DNA of 30,825 nucleotides from a virus. The notes under the pieces were generated by a model. It ran no database searches. It was not told the origin of the DNA and saw only the letters and a program-made list of their open reading frames with translations. The translations under genes were made by a program, and so were the position numbers. Location: IMG/VR virus record IMGVR_UViG_3300037963_000098, positions 1 to 30,825 of that record, one strand, 5' to 3'. Shown here in pieces: positions 100 through 30,632 of this stretch (its first letter is position 1; every line of letters starts with the position of its first letter).

Positions 100-1129
100 G
101 AACACCTTTAGCATTTTTTAATTTTGTATTAACTGCGTTTATTCTATCTCTAATCAATGGGTGTGTATTTCTAACTCTTACATTGTACCCTGCGTTTTTT
201 AATATAGATAAATCTGTTCTTCCACCTGCACTAGTTTTTCTTTGCTTTGATGCAGGATCAGGATATACGAATATATGTTTTCCAGAGTAGCGATTATTGA
301 TTTCCTCAACAAGTTCGTCAGTATTACTACTGAAAATGACAATTTCATCGTACACATACAAGTTATCTTGTTTTACTTCTGATATAACAGCAGATACAGG
401 ATCTATATTAAAATCAATTCCTATGTGTATTGAATTAGTTGTAGGTGCATATTCTTCTATAACATTTTGCTCTCTATCAAAGTTGTAATATATTTGACCC
501 GAATACTTCTCAAAAGATGCCATATACTCTTGTCTAAATGTTCTATCATCTAGGTCGTTCTTAGCTTGATCTATTTCATTTTGTGATACTTGACCACCAT
601 CTAATGTAGTAAATTGAAAAGACTTCCAATTCTTATCATTGTCTTGTCTTGTATAAAGATTATAACTCCAATTACCAAATCCTCTAGGTGTACCAAGAAA
701 CAAAGCTGATCCTTCTCTAGATTTATCTGATAATGTAGGCCGCAATACTTCAAACCATGCTCTCTCATCTACGTCTGAGAACTCATCTATACAAATAAAA
801 TCTAATCCAACACCCCTTAAAGAGTTAAAATTATCTGATGATCTAAGCTGTATTAATGATTTGTTTTTAAGTGTAATTGTTAGGTCAGAATAGTTTACTT
901 TGCTAATCCATTTATGTTTAGTCATTTTCTCTACTAATGGATCAAGCATAATGTCTTTACACATTCTAAATGTTGGTGCTATATACCAAACCTTCTTTCT
1001 TGGATATCTTGAAAACTTAGCTAATTCATTCAAAGCAAGAAATGTTTTACCAAATCTTCTACCTGTTATAAGAACTCTAAATCTAGCTTCTGATGTAAAT
1101 ACTTCTTTTTGTGCTTTAGATAATGGCAT
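1..1129 (-). CDS. terL: Terminase large subunit (N-terminal 376 codons; continues at 30726)
   Basis: This is the ATP-driven DNA-packaging motor and nuclease that docks on the portal. The gene runs off the left edge and continues in frame at 30726-30632, giving a 407-residue protein. The ATPase domain shows a Walker-A-like GRRFGKT (residues 23-29), Walker B ending ICIDE (D115, E116) and a coupling motif GTP (146-148). The RNase-H-like nuclease starts with GIDF (D239). The ATG at 1129 overlaps the stop of the upstream methyltransferase (TAATG). The nuclease half ends in the right-hand fragment. About 400 residues is a normal compact size for the family. Confidence 0.95.
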   Translation of the reverse strand, partial: MPLSKAQKEVFTSEARFRVLITGRRFGKTFLALNELAKFSRYPRKKVWYIAPTFRMCKDIMLDPLVEKMTKHKWISKVNYSDLTITLKNKSLIQLRSSDNFNSLRGVGLDFICIDEFSDVDERAWFEVLRPTLSDKSREGSALFLGTPRGFGNWSYNLYTRQDNDKNWKSFQFTTLDGGQVSQNEIDQAKNDLDDRTFRQEYMASFEKYSGQIYYNFDREQNVIEEYAPTTNSIHIGIDFNIDPVSAVISEVKQDNLYVYDEIVIFSSNTDELVEEINNRYSGKHIFVYPDPASKQRKTSAGGRTDLSILKNAGYNVRVRNTHPLIRDRINAVNTKLKNAKGVRTLFIANKCKNVIKSIERQIYKEGTSLPDKENN

Positions 1130-1623
1130 TAATACATTCTGGTATATTTGATTTCACCAATGTAATTTCTTTTGAAATATATACACCCAACTATAAAACC
1201 CATTTTAAAACCATGTTGTGATCCTGTACCCATATTTAATAATTCTTTTATATCACCATAATTTTTGACCATTAAATCATTAGACTTAGATTTGAATAGC
1301 TTTGAAAATGGAACAAAAAAAACAATATTACTAGATATACTCATAGATTTTTCTAAGAATTGGTCATAAATACTATATGGTGGATTTGTTATTATCCAAT
1401 CTACTTTTTTATTATATTCAAAGAAATCTCTACCTAAATCTATTTCACACCAATCTTTATCACCATTTAATTGATCGTAAAAAGCACCTGTACCTTTGCA
1501 TGGCTCTAAAATTTTACCAGATGGTTTAAAGTATTCTATAATTGTTTTTGCAGTTTTAGGATTTGTCATCACTCTATCTTGTTGAGTAGCATTTCCTGTT
1601 TTATTAGGTTTTGTTGGTTTCAA
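1129..1623 (-). CDS. Small N6-adenine DNA methyltransferase
   Basis: A 164-residue methyltransferase-like protein. The SAM-binding motif is visible as ILEPCKGTGAF (about residues 38-48) and the catalytic motif as NPPY (about 79-82), preceded by the usual D-W-I-I-T stretch; together these point to methylation of adenine N6. It is short and has no obvious separate target-recognition domain. It sits between terS and terL, with its stop overlapping the terL start, so it is made with the packaging proteins. Likely roles are protecting phage DNA from restriction or marking DNA for packaging; both are inferences. No partner restriction enzyme is present. Confidence 0.85.
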   Translation of the reverse strand: MKPTKPNKTGNATQQDRVMTNPKTAKTIIEYFKPSGKILEPCKGTGAFYDQLNGDKDWCEIDLGRDFFEYNKKVDWIITNPPYSIYDQFLEKSMSISSNIVFFVPFSKLFKSKSNDLMVKNYGDIKELLNMGTGSQHGFKMGFIVGCIYFKRNYIGEIKYTRMY

Positions 1624-9719: not shown

Positions 9720-10168
9720 TATTTTACTCCTGCTAATGGGTTAGCTAATATCTTTTGTATTTTATCTTCTAATTCTTGCTCAATCACCTTTAAATCTTTC
9801 GATAATTCTCTTTCAGTATCTTTTACCCTGTCCTCAATATCATTAACTACCTTATCTATTGATCTTATGTCTTGTTTTAAATCTTTCAAATCATCATTTA
9901 TGTTTTTAGATAAATTACTAGCCACATCATTGACTAAACTAACTTCTTCTAAAACTGTTGATATTTCAGATTTCAACACAGCTATTTGCTCGTCATAGTG
10001 GCTCATGTCTGGTGATACAAAATCGTTTACTCTTTGTTGTAGTAGTTGATAATCCTTCCAAAATTCAAAAGCACCCCAAAGACCACCACCAAGAGTACCA
10101 AGCAAGGAAAACAAAATAAATATTTTCCCACCTTTTAATTTAATACCTTGATATTCTACCTCTGCCAT
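9719..10168 (-). CDS. Membrane-anchored coiled-coil protein, 149 aa
   Basis: After a short polar start (MAEVEYQGIKLKGGK) comes one membrane helix (IFILFSLLGTLGGGLWGAF, about 16-34). The rest is long coiled coil (about 40-140) with repeated pattern LKQDIRSIDKVVNDIEDRV. This places a long rod on one side of the inner membrane. I recall similar proteins near tail-fibre genes of marine phages, but function is unknown. It overlaps the acidic secreted protein gene by 13 bases. Confidence 0.65.
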   Translation of the reverse strand: MAEVEYQGIKLKGGKIFILFSLLGTLGGGLWGAFEFWKDYQLLQQRVNDFVSPDMSHYDEQIAVLKSEISTVLEEVSLVNDVASNLSKNINDDLKDLKQDIRSIDKVVNDIEDRVKDTERELSKDLKVIEQELEDKIQKILANPLAGVK

Positions 10169-11487
10169 TGTAAATCCACTAATTCATTCATTCCTAAATA
10201 ATCCATATAAAATAAATCTAAATGAGTATCTTCTATCATGTTTTGATCTAGATACAAATTCACATCTTCATAAAATTGTTTATCAAGTAATTCTCTATCT
10301 GTATATGTGTTATAATCGTTATCTGATAAAACTATCATTAATGCTAATTGTGTAGTTTGTGACTCTACAGACATCTTATCTTTAAGATTAGCAATAATCT
10401 TTTTAGCAATCTTTTGTTTCATTTCTCTAGGATTTGGTCTTTCAGTTTCAGCTTCTTCTACCTCTTCTTGCTCTGGCTCATCTACTGTTTCTTCAACAAC
10501 TTCTTCTACAATTTCCTCTTGGGTTTCTTCTGTAATTTCCTCAGGTTGTTCTTCAGCTATTTCTTCGGGTTGTTCTTCTACAACTTCTATCTCAATCTCC
10601 TCTGGCATTTCTTCAATAATCTCTGGTAATTCTTCCATGATTTGATCATCTAATTCAGCATAAAGTTCTACTTCAATCTCTGGTAAATCCTCAAGTATCG
10701 GAATATCAATAGAAATATCTAAATCTTCAACAGGTGCAAAATCAATTTCAAAAGATATATCTTCATTAAAATAATCTTCTATAACAACTTCAAAAGATAC
10801 TTCTTCATATTCTATTTCTTCAAAAAAAATATCATTTACAATATCATCTATAATATCAGTAATTATATCTATTGTTTGATATTCAACAGTTAAGAATGGA
10901 TCTGAAATTATTCCACCATAGAATCCAGACGTATATCCTGCATCTACAGACCATATATCCATTTGAAAGTTTATATCTAAATAATTATTTACACCTAGAG
11001 ATTGATTGTAAGAATAATCTTGAACTCCTACATAATTCATTTCAACTGTATGCTGATGTGTTTTAAATATTGTTCCTGTTTCGTCTGATAATTTTAAAGT
11101 AATTGTAAAATAGTCTTTACAGTCACTATTTGTGTTTGAACAGCTAGGAACATTTGTGTTACTGACATGACTTTCAATACTCGCACCATATTCATAATCA
11201 AATCCTTGTTGTATTTCTTCTATAGATAATCCTTGATTTATAAGACTTATTTGGTCTGAAACAATCTTACCACCATCATTTTCATTGTAGCCACCACGAA
11301 TACTTGAACTTCCTGTGCATACTTCACCATCTTGTAATTGACCAGAATAACTACATTGGGTGATTGATGCTTTGTTTTCTAATGTCCACTCATCAGCAGG
11401 TGGAACTAGATTACCTGTATCTATTTCTTCAGCTTTAGAGGAATACGAGCATACTAAGAGCCAAAAGACCAAAATCCTTAATATCAT
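10156..11487 (-). CDS. Secreted protein with long acidic repeat tract, 443 aa
   Basis: The ATG at 11487 follows AAGGA. The N-terminus MILRILVFWLLVCSYSSKA is a signal peptide, cleaved likely after KA. Residues about 35-200 form a beta-rich, cysteine-containing domain (QCSYSG, GEVCTG, SCSNTNSDC). Residues about 203-350 are extremely acidic with repeats of the type E-E-Q-P-E-E-I. The final 90 residues turn basic then mixed (MKQKIAKKIIANLKDK). Such a tract could bind cations or cell-surface material. It is the largest member of the envelope-directed cluster; no family recognised. Confidence 0.7.
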   Translation of the reverse strand: MILRILVFWLLVCSYSSKAEEIDTGNLVPPADEWTLENKASITQCSYSGQLQDGEVCTGSSSIRGGYNENDGGKIVSDQISLINQGLSIEEIQQGFDYEYGASIESHVSNTNVPSCSNTNSDCKDYFTITLKLSDETGTIFKTHQHTVEMNYVGVQDYSYNQSLGVNNYLDINFQMDIWSVDAGYTSGFYGGIISDPFLTVEYQTIDIITDIIDDIVNDIFFEEIEYEEVSFEVVIEDYFNEDISFEIDFAPVEDLDISIDIPILEDLPEIEVELYAELDDQIMEELPEIIEEMPEEIEIEVVEEQPEEIAEEQPEEITEETQEEIVEEVVEETVDEPEQEEVEEAETERPNPREMKQKIAKKIIANLKDKMSVESQTTQLALMIVLSDNDYNTYTDRELLDKQFYEDVNLYLDQNMIEDTHLDLFYMDYLGMNELVDLQWQR

Positions 11488-12004
11488 CAAAAGTTCCTTC
11501 TTGTTTTTTTTCTTCTACAATTTGCTCTTTTATATCTTCATAGTCAGGTCTTAGATGTGGGTTTGCTTCCCAATAATCTTGTGCCTCTTGTCCAATTAGA
11601 GAAACTTTTTTTACAGGATCATAGACAGGGCAACTTGTTCCAGAATTTTGCATGGCTACAAATACTCTTTTGTCTTGACACAAAATACTTACACTTGCGA
11701 TTTTAAGCCCTTGTTTGAATAAAGTTTGAGAAAGCAATAATCTCTCACAATTCAAGTCCACAATAGTCATACCGCTGCTAATACCGAGTATTTGGGTCTG
11801 GACAGCACCAGACACTCCAGATCTACATATAAAACTATTCACAGAATTTATAGATGGTGAATTTGCTGATGGTGGTGTTTTATCTACTGTGACTGTTGAA
11901 TTAGAAACTGTATTTGTATTGGCATTAACTTGACTACAAATTAAAAGTGTAATTAAAAATATTACACAGCAAGAAGTGACATACATAAACCAATCATTTC
12001 TCAT
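11435..12004 (-). CDS. Secreted or membrane protein, 189 aa
   Basis: Residues about 8-27 (YVTSCCVIFLITLLICSQVN) form a signal or anchor. A threonine/serine/proline-rich stretch follows (TVTVDKTPPSANSPSINSV), then a domain with five spaced cysteines (FICRSG, LNCERL, ILCQDKR, SCPVYD). The end is charged helix plus a hydrophobic tail (FGLLALSMLVFL). That tail coincides with the 52-base overlap with the next gene's signal-peptide region, so two membrane segments are read from one DNA stretch in different frames. Function unknown. Confidence 0.65.
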   Translation of the reverse strand: MRNDWFMYVTSCCVIFLITLLICSQVNANTNTVSNSTVTVDKTPPSANSPSINSVNSFICRSGVSGAVQTQILGISSGMTIVDLNCERLLLSQTLFKQGLKIASVSILCQDKRVFVAMQNSGTSCPVYDPVKKVSLIGQEAQDYWEANPHLRPDYEDIKEQIVEEKKQEGTFDDIKDFGLLALSMLVFL

Positions 12005-17495: not shown

Positions 17496-18040
17496 TACTT
17501 TCTACCCCAAATTAAATCTTGAACTGTTAATGCAGAAAATTCCATGCCTTTATCACTAGAAAAAAAGTTTTGTTGACTGCCCTCATTTGTTTTTCTACCA
17601 GAGACTCTACTAAAATCAGCAAAGTGAGAAGTACAACTTAATATCAATCTTGCTTTATCTGTGTCTATACTAAAACTTTCAATAAAACCTATGTCATAAT
17701 TAAAAGTTCCAATTAAAGCATCTGAACTATTTAGAAGTCCAATATCTATTGTGACTTCATCATTAGAAACATTATTGTTTAAAACAATAGAAACAAATGC
17801 ACTATCTACTGCTGAGAGTTCAATTTGAAAATTACCTACATCAAGTTCTGATTTTTCAGCTTTACCACCAATAGATATTAGATGTCCACTAGATGTATAA
17901 GTATTTGAATTATGGGTAATATCTTTGTAATGGTTTGTAATTCTTTGTGGTGTTGGGAATAATATTTCTATAAGTACAATGGGTTTTATATTCTGATTTT
18001 GTAATTCAGTTGTAATTGCACTAGATAATCCTCTAGTCAT
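17495..18040 (-). CDS. Distal tail protein with DUF2163-like N-terminus
   Basis: A 181-residue protein. LIEILFPTPQRITNHYKDIT, SGHLISIGG and the AVDSAFVSIVL segment resemble DUF2163/BR0599-type tail proteins, which lie between the tape measure and the tip protein in siphoviruses and gene transfer agents. The end, KGMEFSALTVQDLIWGRK, carries the family's typical closing W-G. It probably links the distal tail ring to the tip. Start and stop both use one-base overlaps with neighbours. Confidence 0.75.
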   Translation of the reverse strand: MTRGLSSAITTELQNQNIKPIVLIEILFPTPQRITNHYKDITHNSNTYTSSGHLISIGGKAEKSELDVGNFQIELSAVDSAFVSIVLNNNVSNDEVTIDIGLLNSSDALIGTFNYDIGFIESFSIDTDKARLILSCTSHFADFSRVSGRKTNEGSQQNFFSSDKGMEFSALTVQDLIWGRK

Positions 18041-18630
18041 TACAATGCCTCAATAAAATCTACTTCGTATCTAAATGTATCTAAGTTATCTGTTGTAAAC
18101 TGTTGTATATCGCTTGTTAGTCTAACTGTAAACTCTACTCCATCATAAGTCACAGCGGCATTATCTGATATTGCTGATCTTAAAGGTGGCTCAATAGTAA
18201 GTGTAGCTTCATTACTTCCATCTGCTGTCACATCTGAAACTACCATGTAAACTTTTGTATCACCTGCAAATTTTACTAAATCTCCTGCTTTCAATGTCCC
18301 TGTCATAGCATCTACAGTTATTGTTGTATCTCCTGCTGTATGTGCGTTTTTTACTAATACAGTTCCAGATACATTTCCTTTTGCATTTTTAATATCTGGT
18401 AAAGATATTTGGAATGTTTCTTTTTGTGATCTTTGTTTCATAACAAAAGCAAAAACAGGTGCAAAGTCTGATCTACTTAAAGCAGAATAACTTGCAGAAA
18501 ATTTAAATCTTTGACCATCTATTTGTGTAGAAAACATTTTTCCACTATCAGTAGTTGATACTTTTGTTCTTTGCTCTGATCCAAAGTTTATGGATCTAAA
18601 TTCAGGTGATGTTGGATATGTGCCACTCAT
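18040..18630 (-). CDS. Distal tail-type structural protein, 196 aa
   Basis: Located directly after the tape measure. N-terminal FRSINFGSEQRTKVSTTDSG, then FAPVFAFVMKQRSQKETFQI, and a central insertion with VLVKNAHTAGDTTITVDAMT and GDLVKFAGDTKVYMVV, which looks like a small beta-barrel (Hint/SH3-like) inserted between two halves of the outer fold. The last 30 residues return to the main fold (EVDFIEAL). Position suggests a distal tail (Dit-like or gpM-like) subunit. Confidence 0.7.
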   Translation of the reverse strand: MSGTYPTSPEFRSINFGSEQRTKVSTTDSGKMFSTQIDGQRFKFSASYSALSRSDFAPVFAFVMKQRSQKETFQISLPDIKNAKGNVSGTVLVKNAHTAGDTTITVDAMTGTLKAGDLVKFAGDTKVYMVVSDVTADGSNEATLTIEPPLRSAISDNAAVTYDGVEFTVRLTSDIQQFTTDNLDTFRYEVDFIEAL

Positions 18631-23414: not shown

Positions 23415-24257
23415 TTACTGGATTGATGAGTCTGCTATTACTTCAATACCATATGAATCATGTAGTTCACCAACACCATAAACTGCTGTTGCTACAATCT
23501 CATCTGCTCTTAAAGAAGCATCTCTTTGTGTTTCAATCTTAATGTCTTGCATCATAGCTAGAGCAAGTGCATCTTTGTGGAACATTCCACCTTTATAGTC
23601 ACCTGCTGTACCTGTGTTGTCCATGTTGCCTGTTTCAAAGATTTTGATACCTGCTAATTGTCCAATAAAGCCATTTCTTAATGCTTCATTAGATAAATCA
23701 TGGTCTAAACCTGCAAAGGTATTTGTTAAACCTGATTTGAGGTCATATGCAACTTTTGGGTGTAATACAAGATATGTTTCATTAACAGGTAAACCTGCTG
23801 CCCTTAGTGTTGATGCTGCATTAAATACAGTTGCAGGAGTTAATGCTGCACTATCTGTACCTGCTGCTGTGCTAAAGCCATCAAATAGAGCAATTAAGTC
23901 TTGATCCATTTTCTTAGCGATAGCTTCACCAAATAATCTACCAATATCCGCAGCAACATTTCTTGGTGCTGAGTTTCTTGCTAGATCTGTTAATGTAGTC
24001 ATTACTCCAACTTCTGATGCTGTTATAGTTACAGAAGTAGGATTAATTGCGGTATTAGATAAATCTGTTGCTTCGTTTACTGCTGCGGCTGATACTGCTG
24101 CATAAATAGGAACTTCAACTGACTTTCCACCACCTGCAATTGCGTAGTTCTTCACAAGATTTTTCATTATAGATTTCTCTTGAATGACAAATTGTGCTTC
24201 AGCTACGATCTCTGTATATAGTTCACTTAACGTTGAACTGGTGCTTTCATTAGCCAT
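23415..24257 (-). CDS. Major capsid protein (HK97-fold)
   Basis: A 280-residue protein with the features of compact HK97-fold coat proteins of marine phages: helical arm (LSELYTEIVAEAQFVIQEKS, about 9-28), VEVPIYAAVSAAAVNEATDL, the strand and turn TSVTITASEVGVMTTLTDLA, a spine helix (NVAADIGRLFGEAIAKKMDQ), and AGLPVNETYLVLHPKVAYDL in the axial domain. The end (GELHDSYGIEVIADSS) is a typical final strand. AAAGGAT precedes the ATG. No prodomain is seen, and the scaffold is a separate upstream gene. Strong expression is expected. Confidence 0.9.
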   Translation of the reverse strand: MANESTSSTLSELYTEIVAEAQFVIQEKSIMKNLVKNYAIAGGGKSVEVPIYAAVSAAAVNEATDLSNTAINPTSVTITASEVGVMTTLTDLARNSAPRNVAADIGRLFGEAIAKKMDQDLIALFDGFSTAAGTDSAALTPATVFNAASTLRAAGLPVNETYLVLHPKVAYDLKSGLTNTFAGLDHDLSNEALRNGFIGQLAGIKIFETGNMDNTGTAGDYKGGMFHKDALALAMMQDIKIETQRDASLRADEIVATAVYGVGELHDSYGIEVIADSSIQ

Positions 24258-24278: not shown

Positions 24279-24989
24279 TTATTTATTTAAGTTAATAATC
24301 GTACTAACACTATCTCTTTGCTTTCTATGTTCTGCATAGAGTTTCCTGTCAGCAGGATTATTCATGTCTAGTTCCGAAATATTTAGAGTCTTATTCGTGT
24401 CTGACTTACCCACATTCGACACACTTCCACTCCCAGAGGGAGTTGCTGCTTGGAAATGTGCGTTTTGCGTCAAAAACTCTTGGACTGCTTCATCAACAGT
24501 TAGTAGTTCACCTTTTGAGTTATATCTTGGAGTTTTATCTTTATCAAGTATTTCTACTCTACCATCTGCATTTAATTGAACATTATCTTTTAAAAGTTCT
24601 TTAATCTGTTCTGGATTGACTGCATTATTTTTAGAAGCAGAGTTTATTAATTGTTTATCAATTCTTTCGTTCTTTAGTTCTTTCTCTAGCTTTGCGACCT
24701 TATCTGTAAATTCTTGTGATTTCTTTTTTATCACTTCATCAAACTTACCTCTTTCTAATGCAAGTTCTTCTTCTTTCTTTGCTTTCTCAGCAATAGCTAA
24801 TTTTGCATCTTCAAGACTTTCAATACCTAAATCTTTCATTATGGATAGTTTTTGTCTTGCTAACCTCTCTTGCACTATTTTATCTATATCAGCTTGTTTG
24901 GGTTGAGATTGTTCTTTAGTTTCTTTTACTACTTCTTCTTGTTTTGTTTCTTCCTGTACTGTTTCCGGTTTTAGATTCTCGTCAGACAT
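24279..24989 (-). CDS. Capsid scaffold protein
   Basis: A 236-residue acidic, coiled-coil protein without enzymatic motifs. Residues about 1-30 are glutamate/lysine-rich, 31-125 form long helices (DKIVQERLARQKLSIMKDLG; KSQEFTDKVAKLEKELKNER), and the C-terminal part has AHFQAATPSGSGSVSNVGKS and a basic helix (PADRKLYAEHRKQRD), which in scaffolds binds the capsid. The gene precedes the capsid gene directly. AAGGAG stands before the ATG, below a possible promoter. Confidence 0.82.
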   Translation of the reverse strand: MSDENLKPETVQEETKQEEVVKETKEQSQPKQADIDKIVQERLARQKLSIMKDLGIESLEDAKLAIAEKAKKEEELALERGKFDEVIKKKSQEFTDKVAKLEKELKNERIDKQLINSASKNNAVNPEQIKELLKDNVQLNADGRVEILDKDKTPRYNSKGELLTVDEAVQEFLTQNAHFQAATPSGSGSVSNVGKSDTNKTLNISELDMNNPADRKLYAEHRKQRDSVSTIINLNK

Positions 24990-25040: not shown

Positions 25041-25241
25041 TCAATATCTTTCACCCTCTTTTCTATCAGAAATATCAGCAAATAATTTTATTTGTTCATC
25101 TGTAAGTTTTTCATTGTTTAATATTGCTTCTTCTAAAATATCTGCAAGTTCTGGTTTTTCCCCATAGTTTACCTCTACAATACTAAATGGTAATTTTTCT
25201 ATCTTTTCTTCGTATATTCTGTGTAATCTTGTATAACTCAT
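25041..25241 (-). CDS. Hypothetical head-module protein, 66 aa
   Basis: Begins MSYTRLHRIYEEKIEKLPFS and is acidic, with a helical end (ADILEEAILNNEKLTDEQIK). The ATG overlaps the stop of the MuF-peptidase gene (ATGA). It lies between that gene and the scaffold gene. Possible roles are a peptidase partner or a minor capsid component; nothing in the sequence decides. Confidence 0.6.
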   Translation of the reverse strand: MSYTRLHRIYEEKIEKLPFSIVEVNYGEKPELADILEEAILNNEKLTDEQIKLFADISDRKEGERY

Positions 25242-27163
25242 AATACATTCTCCATTTCTCTAATCATTTGTTCAAACATTTCTGTTGTTTCTGGTGCGTA
25301 GTATCTCATTAGTTTGAGATATGACTGTCCATATTTTGCTTCTGTTGTTAGTGCAACAAAATTAGCAAATGCTTCTGATGTATGACCATCTGTGACTGCA
25401 AACCCATATTTTCTGCTTATAGTAGTAAAATCTCTATAATATTCAATAGTATGTCCAAATCCTACTTTATTTTGTGAAATTGCACCTACATAATCCATAA
25501 ACAAATCCATATGATCGTCTAATCCTTTATCAACAGTAGTTCTTGTTATAAGATTTAACATCTCACCCCTATTGAAATTACCTTGAAATTCAAAAAGACT
25601 ATAAAGTTCTTTTTTAGATAAAGGAAAGTCTGGGTTATCTTTTAGAACTTGTGTTAAATATTTATCAAAATCATCATCATTTACAGGTCTGCTATTTTTA
25701 ATAGCTAATCTTTTTTTCTTATTATCTTCAAAGTTTCTTTTAATTCTTCTTCTATCATTCAATATTTTCATACTCGCATAATTAGAATAGGTATTTCTAA
25801 CATTTTCAAAGATATATCCTTGCTCTGCATTATCTATTGCACCTAATTTTTTCAGTTTTTCTTTTATCTGTTTTCTTTTGTTTTCTGGTAAATATCTTAA
25901 AAAATTATCGTCAATTCTATGTCCATATTCATGCCTATAAACTTCTGCAAATTTTTGTGGATCTGAATATTGACGCATAGATAGTTCATCTCTAGATTGG
26001 TTGTAAAAAGACTTTCCTTTGTTTGTAGTATATTTTTTAAGTGCAGGTAATATAGATATTGCTTTGACTATGGTATTGTTGGCATCATCTTTAATGTCTA
26101 AGAAAGAGCTATCTAATAATTTTTTTTCTGTGCCTGTTTTTTTAAAACTGTTTTGATCTTTTCTAACCTTTTGATTTACTTTTGTTTGCTCTTGAATATT
26201 GTCATCTGTTTCTTCTGTAAACCAATCATCATCATAAAGTATAAAGCTGTGCCTACATCTATATCCACCTCTATTAATAAATGGATCTGTGCCAGACTTT
26301 CCTCTCCAAGATTGTTGCCAGATAGATCTTGCTTCTTCTTCTGTAAATACTCTATCTAAATATCTTCTACAAAAACTTCTGGTTGTAGTTATGTTTGTTC
26401 CTACATATTGGAACTTAGAAATACCTGCTTCTTTGCCTTTGTATAAAGTAAACTGCCCATCAAACTGCATCAAACTATCTTGTGCTATTTGACTTGCATA
26501 TCTTCTCATATTGTTGCCCAGAATATCTGAAGCATATTTTGTGTGAAGTATCTCTCTTGCTTTTTTTACTTTTGCAATAATCTGTGCATTCTCTGAATAT
26601 CTATTTTTATCTATATAATCTACAAGTCTATTAACTGCGTTCTCGTTTGATCTTTGATATACACCACTTATCTGTCCTCTGATGTTCTTTACCATTTCGT
26701 TAAATGGTCTGCCTGTCACAGAAGATTGATATACTTCGTTTGAAATAGTATCTAAAAACCTATTTCCTACATCTTCAAACCCTGAGTATGATAGCATCTT
26801 TAAATCATTGATTACTTTTAGATCTGGTTTTGTTAGTGTTTTAAACTGATCTGGAATTGGTAATGGTTTTATAAATCTTTGATATTCTTTTACTATTTCA
26901 TCATATTCAGAAACAATACTATCAGCTTCTTTTAGAAAGTTTTGCTCTATTAGTCTTTTTAAGTTTGGTCTTAGTTCCATAGCCAGTCTAGTATTAAGTT
27001 TGGCTCCGCCATCGGTAATTGATGTGAGATCAGCAATAATCTCATCTTCTAAGTTCTTTAATGTATTGATTATGCGTTCTTCGTGACTATCAGCTAATTT
27101 TGAAAGTATTTCTTGTTTTTTATTAGCGAATTGTTTGAAACTATCTTTGAATGCGTCTGCCAT
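25238..27163 (-). CDS. MuF-type minor head protein fused to a zinc-peptidase-like domain
   Basis: A 641-residue protein. Residues about 100-315 look like the SPP1 gp7/Mu gpF head-morphogenesis domain: LSYSGFEDVGNRFLDTISNE, GRPFNEMVKNIRGQIS, YASQIAQDSLMQFDGQF, and the conserved TTTRSFCRRYLDRVFTEEEA ... NRGGYRCRHSF (C265, C303). After a polar linker, the C-terminal part (about 380-641) has HEYGH (411-415) in FAEVYRHEYGHRIDDNF, a zincin motif, and a later H-T-S-E-A-F-A-N-F (E597) that could supply the third ligand. The C-terminal domain could be injected or act during head maturation. The ATG lacks a good ribosome site and lies in a palindrome. Confidence 0.8.
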   Translation of the reverse strand: MADAFKDSFKQFANKKQEILSKLADSHEERIINTLKNLEDEIIADLTSITDGGAKLNTRLAMELRPNLKRLIEQNFLKEADSIVSEYDEIVKEYQRFIKPLPIPDQFKTLTKPDLKVINDLKMLSYSGFEDVGNRFLDTISNEVYQSSVTGRPFNEMVKNIRGQISGVYQRSNENAVNRLVDYIDKNRYSENAQIIAKVKKAREILHTKYASDILGNNMRRYASQIAQDSLMQFDGQFTLYKGKEAGISKFQYVGTNITTTRSFCRRYLDRVFTEEEARSIWQQSWRGKSGTDPFINRGGYRCRHSFILYDDDWFTEETDDNIQEQTKVNQKVRKDQNSFKKTGTEKKLLDSSFLDIKDDANNTIVKAISILPALKKYTTNKGKSFYNQSRDELSMRQYSDPQKFAEVYRHEYGHRIDDNFLRYLPENKRKQIKEKLKKLGAIDNAEQGYIFENVRNTYSNYASMKILNDRRRIKRNFEDNKKKRLAIKNSRPVNDDDFDKYLTQVLKDNPDFPLSKKELYSLFEFQGNFNRGEMLNLITRTTVDKGLDDHMDLFMDYVGAISQNKVGFGHTIEYYRDFTTISRKYGFAVTDGHTSEAFANFVALTTEAKYGQSYLKLMRYYAPETTEMFEQMIREMENVL

Positions 27164-27187: not shown

Positions 27188-28054
27188 TTAATATTTCAAT
27201 GTATTATTTAATCCTTGAAAAAGATGTGCAATCACTTCGATAGTCCAACCATCACCTAAAAGATCTTGTGCTTGGTTGTATGATACTGAATTTGTATATC
27301 CTAATGGAACTGTTTGTGCTTGTTCTAATTCTTGTCTTGTAAGAAACCTACAAAATTCTTCAAACTCAATTAGACCAGAATTTGGTGATCTATCTTGTTT
27401 TCTTGTAAGACAATAAACTTTATTAGAATGTGTAATGTTTGCACAAGTTTTTCTACTTGATGTTTTTTTACCATTGTTCCACATTTTTATTCTTGATGGT
27501 GTATTGTTTAGCTTATAAATTTTACAAACATCATAATTAGTTTCTTTAAAATCTTGAAAATTTATATTTCTATCTTTTGGAACACAAGCATTTGGAATAT
27601 TAGTCCAATAGATTCTCGGTCTTTTTTGATAACTAACTAATTCAGAATTAATGTGTAAACCTTTAATGCCAAGATAATCATTTAATTGCTGCTCTGAATC
27701 TTTCTTCATTTTAACATTTTCTAATAAGAAATATTTAGGTTTTATTTCCTTTAATATTCTTAAATAATCATAAAATAATTTTGACTTATCTCCTTCTAGT
27801 CCTTTACCATTTGTTTTCATTTGTGAAAAATCTTGACATGGTGATCCACCAATTAATAAATCAATTTTTGGTAGTGATGATAAATCTATTTTTGTGACAT
27901 CTCCAATATGGATAGTGTTTGGAAAGTTTTGTTTTGCAACTTTGATTGCGATAGGCTTGATCTCAGATGCATAATAATTATCATATGGAATACCTGCTCT
28001 ATGAAGTGCTAATTGACCACAAGACATTCCATCAAATAAAGAGAGTACATTCAT
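27188..28054 (-). CDS. C5-cytosine DNA methyltransferase
   Basis: A 288-residue enzyme that methylates cytosine carbon 5. Motifs in order: FDGMSCG (7-13, SAM binding), GGSPCQDFS (69-77, catalytic Cys73), LLENV (110-114), QKRPRIYW (143-150), a short target-recognition part, and the C-terminal TVPLGYTN / GDGWTIEVIAHLFQGL that completes the fold. The order and FDGMSCG style resemble the Dnmt3-like phage branch. The start at 28054 is chosen by AAAGGAAAT and the TAATG overlap with the upstream stop. No restriction endonuclease is adjacent, so protection of phage DNA from host restriction is the likely role. It is oddly placed inside the head module. Confidence 0.92.
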   Translation of the reverse strand: MNVLSLFDGMSCGQLALHRAGIPYDNYYASEIKPIAIKVAKQNFPNTIHIGDVTKIDLSSLPKIDLLIGGSPCQDFSQMKTNGKGLEGDKSKLFYDYLRILKEIKPKYFLLENVKMKKDSEQQLNDYLGIKGLHINSELVSYQKRPRIYWTNIPNACVPKDRNINFQDFKETNYDVCKIYKLNNTPSRIKMWNNGKKTSSRKTCANITHSNKVYCLTRKQDRSPNSGLIEFEEFCRFLTRQELEQAQTVPLGYTNSVSYNQAQDLLGDGWTIEVIAHLFQGLNNTLKY

Positions 28055-28278
28055 TATTTTATTTCCTTTGCTTTGTTCATTGTTTCTTCCCAATATGGGT
28101 AATTATCTAAATTTTCAAATTTGATATGCTTATAATATGCTGCTTTTTCTAGTGTTGCGTCATATACATAAAATCTTTTTGCAGTTCTTTTTAGTAAAAC
28201 ACCAATAACCCAACACTCATCATCTTTTCTAGTTTGTAAAACAATGCAAGGTGTGTATTCGTAATTTTTGGTATTCAT
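28054..28278 (-). CDS. Hypothetical protein linked to the methyltransferase, 74 aa
   Basis: Begins MNTKNYEYTPCIVLQTRKDD; AAGGAG precedes this ATG, so it is preferred over one eight codons upstream. It looks like a small beta-barrel (CWVIGVLLKRTAKRFYVYDA) with a helix near the end. It overlaps the methyltransferase start by one base and may be its partner or an independent small DNA-associated protein. Unknown family. Confidence 0.62.
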   Translation of the reverse strand: MNTKNYEYTPCIVLQTRKDDECWVIGVLLKRTAKRFYVYDATLEKAAYYKHIKFENLDNYPYWEETMNKAKEIK

Positions 28279-29036: not shown

Positions 29037-29233
29037 TATGCTTTAGTCCTTGCTCTTAATAAAGATACAGGTATGCGTTTCCCTGCTTTATATAATGCTG
29101 AAACTCTTTTGATAAGTCTTGCTCGTCTTTTGCGTTCTTCTTCTTTTTTAAGACCAGATAAATACTTTTTGGGTACACCTGTTTTTTTATCTTTTGGAAC
29201 TTTGCGTCTTTTATTCTTTGGCAATTTCTTCAC
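29036..29233 (-). CDS. Small basic protein, 65 aa
   Basis: Almost half lysine and arginine: RRKVPKDKKTGVPKKYLSGL (about 9-28), then KRVSALYKAGKRIPVSLLRA. The T-G-V/L-P-K-K-Y-L/V-S-G-L motif is shared with small proteins of other phages. The apparent GTG at 29233 has GAGG immediately beside it, so a TTG three codons in may be the true start. It overlaps the portal 3' end by 23 bases. Confidence 0.65.
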   Translation of the reverse strand: MKKLPKNKRRKVPKDKKTGVPKKYLSGLKKEEERKRRARLIKRVSALYKAGKRIPVSLLRARTKA

Positions 29234-30632
29234 CCTCGATTGCAGGTGTAGAGAACTGTCCTATTGGTCTAGGTTTTGCTTCTATTTCATTATCAATATT
29301 TGCTATCTTTTCATCATCTTCTACAACTGCTCTAGCTATTTGTTTATCTATTTCTTTTGCAAAAGTATCAGAGGAAACTCCAGATGCTTTGGCTACTTGT
29401 AAAAATTGTAAATCAGCAGAATAATCTCTTAAATTAAAGCTGTCTGGGTATTCTATTTCACCATCAAACTCTTTGTCCTGCCATTTAGCATACAATCTCC
29501 AAATATGTTCTTCTGCATTTTCTAAATAATCTGCTTTTTCTGATAGTCTTGCATTTAATAATTCAAACTCTGTTTGTAAAGCTATGCCTGAGTTAATAGT
29601 CTTTTCTGTGCCTCTTACTGATCCCATATGGGTGACTCTATTAATTGCATCTACTTTCATTTGGATATTTGACATGATGCCATCTAGTGATTGTGATGAT
29701 GGTTGTATAATGTAGGGTTTTAAGTTGGAGTCCATATCTTCTGGCATTTCAATAATTGATCCTGCACCTGCACTGGCTTCTACATTGGGTGTTTTAACTA
29801 AACTTGGGTGATTAGATAATCTAATAAGCTGTTCTATCTCTGAGTAATCATTATAAATAGATTTTTGTAGTTCTGCTACGTCTTGTAAATCACTTATACC
29901 AATACCTCGTCTTTGTGACTTTTGATTGTATAGGGTTATAGCAGGTATCTCACCGATCATGTTTGGCATCTCATCAATTAGTATTGGATTTGATGTGGAA
30001 TAACCTTTGCTAAAGTCTTTGACCATAACTGTAGTAATATCTTCTTTAGTCCATACTCTAATTGTGGCTACATCATTAGATAGGTTTTCTAATAGTGTTA
30101 AGGAAGTAAGTTCATATCTTCCATTAATCATTCTTTGATAATTCCAGTTTAAGACATTTTCAGGTGTGTAAATGGATAAGTATGGTCTGATATCAAGCTG
30201 TATTTCTTCTGCTCTAGTTTCTGTTTGCACAGCGGGTTTATCCATGATTGCCCAACAGGTGCCATAGATAGAAGCATTGATTTGCATTTCTCTGATAATA
30301 TTATCAAATGACCGACCATCTAAATCTGCATCTTTTAAAAAGTTCTCTAGCTGCTCGTCACCAGATAATGTGCCATAGTTCCTTGTGGGCGGTACTCTAA
30401 ACAGGAATGATGAATAGATTTGCACTACATTTTTACAATGATTATCAATAGGAGTATTATTAGTTCTCTTAATATATTCCTCGTCTGATTCTAATACATA
30501 TCTGTTAAGTAGATAGCCATTCTGATAGTCTTGACCACCTATATAAGATAGTAAATGAAAGTGCCAATCTTGGAATTTATCTTCATAATCATCATGTCTT
30601 TCGGTTAAAAAATCTCTTTTGTAATTTGGCAT
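29211..30632 (-). CDS. Portal protein
   Basis: A 473-residue protein forming the 12-subunit vertex ring through which DNA passes. Visible parts include YVLESDEEYIKRTNNTPIDN and VVQIYSSFLFRVPPTR near the N-terminus, INASIYGTCWAIMDKP (about 136-151, clip/wing), IGEIPAITLYNQKSQRRGIG, the long helix DLQDVAELQKSIYNDYSEIE (about 247-266), GSIIEMPEDMDSNLKPYIIQ and LSEKADYLENAEEHIWRLYA. This resembles the DUF4055-like portals. The ATG overlaps the terL stop (TAATG), the standard order terL-portal. Confidence 0.88.
   Translation of the reverse strand: MPNYKRDFLTERHDDYEDKFQDWHFHLLSYIGGQDYQNGYLLNRYVLESDEEYIKRTNNTPIDNHCKNVVQIYSSFLFRVPPTRNYGTLSGDEQLENFLKDADLDGRSFDNIIREMQINASIYGTCWAIMDKPAVQTETRAEEIQLDIRPYLSIYTPENVLNWNYQRMINGRYELTSLTLLENLSNDVATIRVWTKEDITTVMVKDFSKGYSTSNPILIDEMPNMIGEIPAITLYNQKSQRRGIGISDLQDVAELQKSIYNDYSEIEQLIRLSNHPSLVKTPNVEASAGAGSIIEMPEDMDSNLKPYIIQPSSQSLDGIMSNIQMKVDAINRVTHMGSVRGTEKTINSGIALQTEFELLNARLSEKADYLENAEEHIWRLYAKWQDKEFDGEIEYPDSFNLRDYSADLQFLQVAKASGVSSDTFAKEIDKQIARAVVEDDEKIANIDNEIEAKPRPIGQFSTPAIEGEEIAKE

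What the first reader, a model, noticed from the sequence alone, without database searches (positions are those of the whole stretch)
25238..27163. MuF minor head protein carrying a C-terminal zinc-peptidase-like domain
The N-terminal half is MuF-like. The C-terminal half has HEYGH and a downstream H-T-S-E-A-F-A motif, the geometry of a gluzincin-type metallopeptidase. MuF proteins are known to carry variable C-terminal effector domains, including toxins. A peptidase here could act in capsid maturation (no other prohead protease is visible) or be delivered into the host with DNA.
Basis: partly seen in the sequence, partly recalled or inferred. Interest (0 to 1): 0.72.

Follow-up and report, generated by a model that had tools for sequence, protein, structure and literature searches.

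The report
Swappable peptidase on phage head protein
A marine phage related to phages of the abundant ocean bacterium Pelagibacter carries, on the tail end of a capsid protein, a zinc-peptidase domain that is swapped between phages as one cassette together with a tiny partner gene, which looks like an injected effector with its own antidote rather than a capsid-maturation enzyme.

Summary
The gene lies on the MINUS strand (27163-25238, 641 aa). H411, E412, H415 and E597 are invariant in 30 aligned relatives, and the domain is predicted confidently (pLDDT 86, pTM 0.89) as a zincin whose closest solved folds are M34-type catalytic domains. The N-terminal half is MuF-like by predicted fold, gene order and sub-threshold profile match.

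The capsid-maturation idea is not supported. About half of the relatives, including isolates HTVC111P, HTVC112P and HTVC202P, end just after the MuF core and have no zincin.

All 69 complete extended relatives carry HExxH, and 68 (the other contig ends too early) have a small ORF immediately downstream. Short relatives have a real extra ORF there in at most 2 of 91 cases. Zincin and small ORF co-vary (r=0.90; 0.89 after controlling for flanking genes), and swap junctions fall at the zincin start and the small-ORF stop. Near-complete relatives have no recognisable integrase.

Best explanation: a virion-borne MuF-type polymorphic effector (metallopeptidase) with a cognate inhibitor or immunity protein, here in apparently non-temperate pelagiphages. 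Delivery, substrate and inhibition are inferred. New variant of a known kind.

The parts
25238..27163 (-). MuF-like minor head protein with C-terminal zincin domain (641 aa, P0001)
   Evidence: open frame; gene order portal - MuF - small ORF - scaffold - capsid as in HTVC026P
26222..27163 (-). MuF-like core, residues 1-314
   Evidence: conserved in all relatives; predicted fold matches minor capsid / head morphogenesis proteins, best named E 6.9e-6; TIGR01641 E 0.02, below cut-off
26153..26221 (-). linker, residues 315-337; the 5' cassette junction falls at its end
   Evidence: nucleotide similarity to relatives with another cassette stops at 26153 (L053, L051) or 26181 (L055)
25241..26152 (-). 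class I zincin (gluzincin-like) peptidase domain, residues 338-641
   Evidence: AlphaFold2 pLDDT 86, pTM 0.89; VIA Z 8.0-8.4 to M34 catalytic domains
25919..25933 (-). HEYGH active-site motif, residues 411-415
   Evidence: H411, E412, H415 invariant in 30 relatives
25451..25453 (-). H571 of the invariant GxGHxxxY motif, candidate extra active-site residue
   Evidence: invariant in classes I and III
25373..25375 (-). E597, predicted third zinc ligand in SEAFAN
   Evidence: invariant; an E in ExFA/ExFT context also in 27 of 27 class II proteins
25041..25241 (-). 66-aa partner ORF, candidate inhibitor/immunity protein; its ATG overlaps the MuF stop by 4 nt
   Evidence: co-inherited with the zincin
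25047..26153 (-). exchangeable cassette of about 1.1 kb: zincin domain plus partner ORF
   Evidence: flanks align at 82% and 87% nt identity to L053, nothing aligns between
24279..24989 (-). scaffold protein gene, downstream flank of the cassette
   Evidence: phrog_2303 head scaffolding, E 0.00075; HTVC026P gp32 annotated scaffolding
23415..24257 (-). major capsid protein gene
   Evidence: PF25209 E 1.9e-10
29211..30632 (-). portal protein gene
   Evidence: phrog_145 E 2.6e-62

Best explanation
The protein is a MuF-like minor head protein whose C-terminus is an accessory zinc metallopeptidase, part of a MuF-type polymorphic effector system. Shown by sequence: the zincin domain and the downstream 66-aa ORF form one exchangeable cassette inserted between the MuF core and the scaffold gene, gained, lost and swapped as a unit. 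Inferred: the MuF part holds the peptidase in the head near the portal, so a few copies enter the next cell with the DNA; the peptidase cleaves host (or co-infecting phage) proteins early in infection; the small acidic protein made with it binds the peptidase and keeps it inactive in the producing cell until it is packaged. Rough confidence by step: zincin fold 0.95; dispensable accessory 0.9; small ORF a cognate inhibitor 0.7; delivery with DNA 0.65; antibacterial action on host proteins 0.5.
For: Zincin residues invariant and fold predicted. 69 of 69 complete extensions carry HExxH; 68 of 69 have a small ORF after the stop (the exception has 88 nt of contig left), against 3 of 91 short MuF genes, one of those being a frameshifted scaffold; Fisher p 2.5e-40 on non-independent loci. 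Distance correlation zincin~small ORF 0.904; partial 0.892 given core and scaffold, 0 of 2000 permutations; zincin~scaffold partial 0.013. L128 and L141 share an identical MuF core and 91% scaffold, yet zincin 23% and small ORF 21%, with junctions at the zincin start and small-ORF end. All three zincin classes occur in MuF backgrounds only about 37% identical, and related zincins occur in phages with unrelated MuF parts, again with a small ORF downstream; Kolga gp60 is homologous to HTVC026P gp31 (hhalign P 95.6). Small ORFs are mostly acidic (class means -6 to -8), zincin parts basic (+5 to +9); dN/dS about 0.6 for both against 0.23 for the core. Precedents: MuF toxins with small downstream ORFs, 20% metallopeptidases (PMC5576092); Bxa and Apk2 MuF toxins neutralised by adjacent immunity proteins (PMC11699363, PMC12226406).
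Against: No experiment shows toxicity, inhibition, zinc binding or delivery. Classic MuF toxins are mixed (nucleases, ADP-ribosyltransferases and others); here every complete extension is a zincin, which could mean one specific housekeeping job. MuF toxins were reported only in temperate phages (PMC5576092), whereas no integrase or resolvase was found here. The MuF assignment does not reach curated HMM cut-offs. The small ORFs of class I and class III are not linked confidently by profile comparison.
Confidence: 0.62

Rival explanations
1. Prohead protease: the domain processes scaffold, capsid or portal protein during head maturation, and the small ORF is a regulator of that step.
For: No other protease family matched in the window proteins scanned; the gene sits in the head operon between portal and scaffold.
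Against: Relatives with the same head genes lack the domain, including isolates HTVC111P, HTVC112P and HTVC202P with no such zincin elsewhere; five near-complete short-MuF relatives have no class I/III zincin. The domain turns over while scaffold and MuF core stay 90-100% identical. B054 has a MuF-zincin and a separate head maturation protease.
Confidence: 0.06
2. Self-processing peptidase: it cuts the MuF fusion (before packaging or after ejection) and releases one part, as proposed for MPTase domains of polyvalent phage proteins; the small ORF times the cleavage.
For: Zincin domains of DdrB-type and N4-type injected proteins are proposed to autoprocess (PMC5512222); a 20-30 residue polar linker precedes the domain.
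Against: The peptidase is the C-terminal and only payload, so there is nothing else to release except itself; rapid class switching is not explained by a purely internal substrate when the linker is conserved.
Confidence: 0.12
3. Counter-defence or host-takeover peptidase: a virion-delivered protease degrading host defence proteins, exchanged because hosts carry different defences; the small ORF is only a safety lock.
For: Same anatomy; high turnover and elevated dN/dS; apparently non-temperate phages gain little from killing competitors.
Against: No target known; many relatives do without it. It overlaps with the best explanation and differs only in target.
Confidence: 0.15
4. The small ORF is unrelated to the zincin: a structural accessory (for example a head-tail or scaffold cofactor) whose link is only map position.
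For: Small ORFs are common in phage operons and have no informative family match.
Against: It is lost whenever the zincin is lost and follows the zincin, not the scaffold, in the distance tests; homologous pairs occur in unrelated phages.
Confidence: 0.05

Closest known systems
MuF polymorphic toxins of temperate phages (Jamet 2017, PMC5576092; Apk2, PMC12226406; Bxa, PMC11699363)
   Same: MuF-like N-terminus in the head module, variable C-terminal enzymatic domain, small ORF directly downstream, short forms without domain and ORF; about 20% of the known ones carry a metallopeptidase
   Different: Apparently non-temperate marine phages without a recognisable integrase; all extensions here are zincins of three classes without their own Pfam family; MuF core below curated profile cut-offs; no toxicity test exists
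Listeria phage B054 gp4 + gp5
   Same: MuF (TIGR01641 E 5.6e-32) with a C-terminal zincin related to class III (hhalign P 98.2), followed by a 56-aa ORF
   Different: Different MuF sequence, host phylum and genome; a separate head maturation protease is annotated next to it; relation of gp5 to the pelagiphage small ORFs not established
M34-type zincins (lethal-factor-type catalytic domain, PPEP-3) and minigluzincins
   Same: HExxH plus downstream glutamate on a helix; best solved-structure matches Z 8.0-8.4 over about 152-165 residues at about 4 A; PPEP-3 Z 6.0
   Different: 16-18% identity, no Pfam ATLF match for class I, an insert of about 160-180 residues between HExxH and the third ligand; carried on a phage head protein
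MPTase domains of phage polyvalent proteins (PMC5512222)
   Same: Zincin domains on proteins thought to be packaged and injected
   Different: Those are multi-domain proteins where the peptidase is thought to process the polypeptide; here it is the single payload with a dedicated small partner

Membership tests
Zincin (gluzincin-type) metallopeptidase | HExxH with a downstream glutamate as third ligand | tested here: met
   H411, E412, H415, E597 invariant in 30 class I/III sequences; ExF[AT] glutamate in 27 of 27 class II
Zincin (gluzincin-type) metallopeptidase | zincin catalytic fold | tested here: met
   pLDDT 86, pTM 0.89; all rows with Z of 6 or more are lethal-factor-type, Certhrax or PPEP-3 chains, then jannalysin, selecase and ArdC. 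Foldseek alone gave no PDB match at E 0.001 or better
Zincin (gluzincin-type) metallopeptidase | zinc binding and proteolysis | not testable with these tools
   needs protein
MEROPS M34 / ATLF | profile match to PF07737 above cut-off | tested here: not met
   window protein: no match; class II HTVC026P gp30 19.7 bits against 27.4, Kolga gp59 18.6
MuF / SPP1 gp7 minor head proteins | PF04233 or TIGR01641 above curated cut-off | tested here: not met
   TIGR01641 15.2 bits against 39.65; no PF04233 match. Hence called MuF-like, not filed as a member
MuF / SPP1 gp7 minor head proteins | MuF fold | tested here: met
   predicted core (pLDDT 83) matches minor capsid / head morphogenesis proteins in BFVD, 32 matches at E 0.001 or better; the PDB second look shows only generic helical bundles
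MuF / SPP1 gp7 minor head proteins | gene between portal and scaffold/capsid | tested here: met
MuF polymorphic toxins | exchangeable C-terminal domain of 100 aa or more on a conserved N-terminus | tested here: met
MuF polymorphic toxins | small ORF immediately downstream, absent from short forms | tested here: met
   68 of 69 against 3 of 91
MuF polymorphic toxins | toxicity neutralised by the cognate small protein | not testable with these tools
   needs expression assay
MuF polymorphic toxins | temperate phage | tested here: inconclusive
   no PF00589 in 12 and no PF00239 in 14 near-complete records, none in the HTVC026P annotation; records may be incomplete
Prohead (capsid maturation) protease | needed by all phages that share the head module | tested here: not met
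   absent from about half of the relatives and from three cultured phages

The most novel reading that the evidence does not exclude
Apparently virulent pelagiphages use a hypervariable, zincin-only effector/antidote locus on the capsid for phage-phage conflict: an incoming virion injects a peptidase that disables a co-infecting or resident competitor (or cells infected by it), and only phages making the matching small inhibitor are spared, giving kin discrimination among SAR11 phages.
Probability: 0.18. Interest if true: 0.85.

Novelty: new variant of a known kind. Interest (0 to 1): 0.6.

Why it matters
MuF toxins were described as confined to temperate phages, mainly of Firmicutes. The same layout, here with zincins only and a co-swapping small partner, in phages of the ocean's most abundant bacteria would extend virion-borne effectors to apparently non-temperate phages and give a testable effector/antidote pair in a cultured phage (HTVC026P gp30 and gp31). 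It also explains a hypervariable spot in the head operon of these genomes and supplies names for two families now annotated as hypothetical proteins.

Tried and rejected
Capsid maturation: rejected from relatives without the domain. First clustering of extensions by BLAST put all 69 in one group; repeated on the catalytic part only with coverage limits. Profile comparison to unite small ORFs of class I, class III and B054 gp5: no significant link, although a pattern (LY..KF... ...I..AI..N..I) looks shared by eye; not claimed. Pfam and PHROG scans of the small ORFs gave nothing informative; one member's E 6e-44 PHROG has no function. Sequence search of the PDB with the whole protein: no match. 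Foldseek against PDB: no match at E 0.001 or better for the zincin; the second look was needed. PDB search with the MuF core returned only generic helical bundles. SPP1 record not held. Genome-wide scan of bacterial genomes for the class I domain: no relative; for the MuF core: five distant matches, none in Pelagibacterales, so no prophage evidence. The zincin-small ORF complex could not be modelled (single-chain prediction, no coordinates returned). Exceptions among short forms were inspected: L015 is a frameshifted scaffold, L058 has a 70-aa ORF, L178 a 42-aa ORF in a 506-nt gap, L161 a MuF ending 23 residues after the core with 96 nt to the scaffold, perhaps a deletion remnant.

Full report
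What is there. The reported stretch holds one open frame, but on the minus strand. It encodes 641 aa between a portal-side block (portal 29211-30632, small ORFs, a cytosine methyltransferase) and scaffold (24279-24989) plus major capsid protein (23415-24257). No Pfam family covers the protein; PHROGs gives only a weak peptidase match over the HEYGH region (E 0.016). The record is a 30,825-base linear viral contig.

The N-terminal half. Residues 1-314 are the conserved core. The nearest isolates are Pelagibacter phages HTVC026P, HTVC111P, HTVC112P and HTVC202P, 33-35% identical over that part. A predicted model of the core (pLDDT 83) matches proteins named minor capsid protein, head morphogenesis protein and MuF-like minor capsid protein in the viral structure library. 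NCBIfam TIGR01641 (SPP1 gp7) matches at E 0.02, below its cut-off. I therefore call it MuF-like, not a formal member.

The C-terminal half is a zincin. In 30 relatives down to about 20% identity the two histidines, the glutamate of HExxH, D418, H571 and E597 are invariant. The predicted structure is confident (pLDDT 86, pTM 0.89). VIA-align gives Z 8.0-8.4 to lethal-factor-type M34 catalytic domains over 152-165 residues at about 4 A, and Z 6.0 to the pro-pro endopeptidase PPEP-3; lower rows are minigluzincins and ArdC. The tool warns that Z near 8 can be a common arrangement, but here the top rows are all zincins and the catalytic residues were found independently. Foldseek alone found no significant PDB match. 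The viral library gives a head morphogenesis protein (E 1.8e-4) and a minor capsid protein (E 0.018), that is, the same architecture elsewhere.

It is an accessory. Scans with the protein and with the MuF cores fetched about 170 distinct relatives. After removing duplicates, 160 loci have a complete gene: 69 with an extension and 91 that end shortly after RGGY(R/N)CRH. All 69 extensions contain HExxH. Cultured HTVC111P, HTVC112P and HTVC202P have the short form and no class I, II or III zincin elsewhere. So the domain is not needed to build heads, which removes the maturation hypothesis. Listeria phage B054, whose MuF gp4 ends in a class III-like zincin, has a separately annotated head maturation protease.

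It travels with a small gene. In the window a 66-aa ORF (25041-25241) starts inside the last codons of the MuF gene (ATGA overlap). Of the 69 extended loci 68 have a small ORF, nearly always 51-80 aa, at that place (L154 and L136 are frameshifted: the ORF called in L154 is a zincin fragment, that in L136 lies after the rest of the domain); the exception ends 88 nt after the stop. Of the 91 short loci three were scored: one is a frameshifted scaffold, one a 42-aa chance-like ORF, one a real 70-aa ORF. Fisher's p is 2.5e-40, to be read with care because loci are related. The gap to the scaffold is about 200-310 nt with a zincin (larger only in frameshifted loci) and nearly always 8-60 nt without. 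The genes are under protein-level constraint: pooled dN/dS about 0.62 for the small ORF, 0.57 for the zincin part and 0.23 for the core (pairs are not independent).

The two swap together. The catalytic parts fall into class I (38 loci, including the window), class II (27, including HTVC026P) and class III (4), and each class is found in both MuF backgrounds, which are only about 37% identical to each other. Across 36 dereplicated loci the distance of the zincin part correlates with that of the small ORF at 0.904, and at 0.892 after regressing out core and scaffold (0 of 2000 permutations); zincin against scaffold is 0.013 once core and small ORF are regressed out. L128 and L141 have identical MuF cores and 91% identical scaffolds, but zincins of different classes (23%) and small ORFs 21% identical. 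Nucleotide alignments show the junctions: for the window against L053, similarity (82%) stops at 26153 and resumes (87%) at 25047, which is the start of the domain and the end of the 66-aa ORF; L128/L141 and L046/L116 break at the same two places. One near-complete contig carries a class III cassette at its left end and a class II cassette at its right end, each beside the same scaffold (96% nt identity over 481 bases), so two cassettes probably occur at one locus in one population, unless the assembly is chimeric.

The pair is wider than this phage group. Pelagibacter phages Kolga and Aegir carry a canonical MuF protein (PF04233 E 4.4e-15 for Kolga) with a class II zincin and a 56-aa ORF homologous to HTVC026P gp31 (hhalign P 95.6). 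A scan with the zincin alignment found further viral contigs with different N-termini (L242-L250, two of them with arginine-rich, GC-rich-looking sequence) where the zincin is again C-terminal and, wherever the contig continues, followed by a 71-95 aa ORF overlapping the stop. No relative of the class I domain was found in bacterial genomes by the pattern scan.

Lifestyle. Twelve relatives of 29-34 kb have no tyrosine integrase (control genomes all ring); fourteen records including HTVC026P and the window have no resolvase, and HTVC026P has no annotated integrase. MuF cores were found in only five distant bacterial contigs, none in Pelagibacterales. The phages are therefore probably not temperate, which matters because MuF toxins were reported as exclusive to temperate phages (PMC5576092).

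How it most likely works. SPP1 gp7, the studied MuF protein, sits at one or two copies per capsid with the portal (PMC5576092). Fusing an enzyme to such a protein puts a few copies in every virion near the exit, and MuF fusions are proposed to be delivered with DNA (PMC5512222; PMC5576092). MuF toxins Apk2 and Bxa are toxic to bacteria and neutralised by adjacent small proteins, some by direct binding (PMC12226406, PMC11699363). By analogy the zincin here cleaves one or more proteins in the newly infected cell, and the small acidic protein (class mean net charge -6 to -8, zincin part +5 to +9; HTVC026P gp31 is -7 where other small proteins of that phage average +5) blocks it while new virions are made. 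Packaging, delivery, inhibition and target are inferred. The zincin-only repertoire is unusual for a polymorphic toxin and suggests that peptidase activity itself matters, for example against host defence or against competing phages.

Limits. Most relatives are short metagenomic contigs, a few with frameshifts. Counts are not corrected for relatedness beyond removal of duplicates and the partial test. The small-ORF finder accepts ATG, GTG and TTG starts of at least 35 codons. No complex could be modelled.

Noticed in passing
window 27188-28093 (-): Cytosine C5 DNA methyltransferase gene directly upstream of the MuF gene; the same gene sits there in L005/L045 and L044 but not in most relatives, so the space upstream of MuF is also variable.
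   Followed up: partly
L256 and L257 (the two ends of the 32,403-base contig of L051): The two ends carry different zincin cassettes (class III and class II) beside the same scaffold gene (96% nt identity over 481 bases): mixed population or assembly chimera broken at the hypervariable cassette.
   Followed up: yes
L161, MuF end to scaffold: MuF ends 23 residues after the core with only 96 nt to the scaffold, in a group where nearly all others have the cassette: possible remnant of a deletion that removed zincin and small ORF together.
   Followed up: partly
L058, downstream of a short MuF gene: A 70-aa ORF follows a MuF gene that has no zincin; possibly an unrelated insert or an orphan partner gene.
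   Followed up: no
window 10156-11490 (-): 444-aa protein with a long Glu/Val/Ile-rich acidic repeat region and no PHROG match.
   Followed up: no
window 18040-18630 (-): Distal tail protein containing a stretch that matches the C-terminal part of a major head protein family (phrog_283, E 7.6e-13), perhaps a shared Ig-like insert.
   Followed up: no
window 1129-1623 (-): 164-aa DNA methyltransferase matching only part of its family profile (phrog_799), near the contig end.
   Followed up: no
L190 21400-21813 (HTVC026P gp47): Annotated as toxin-activating lysine-acyltransferase inside the tail module.
   Followed up: no
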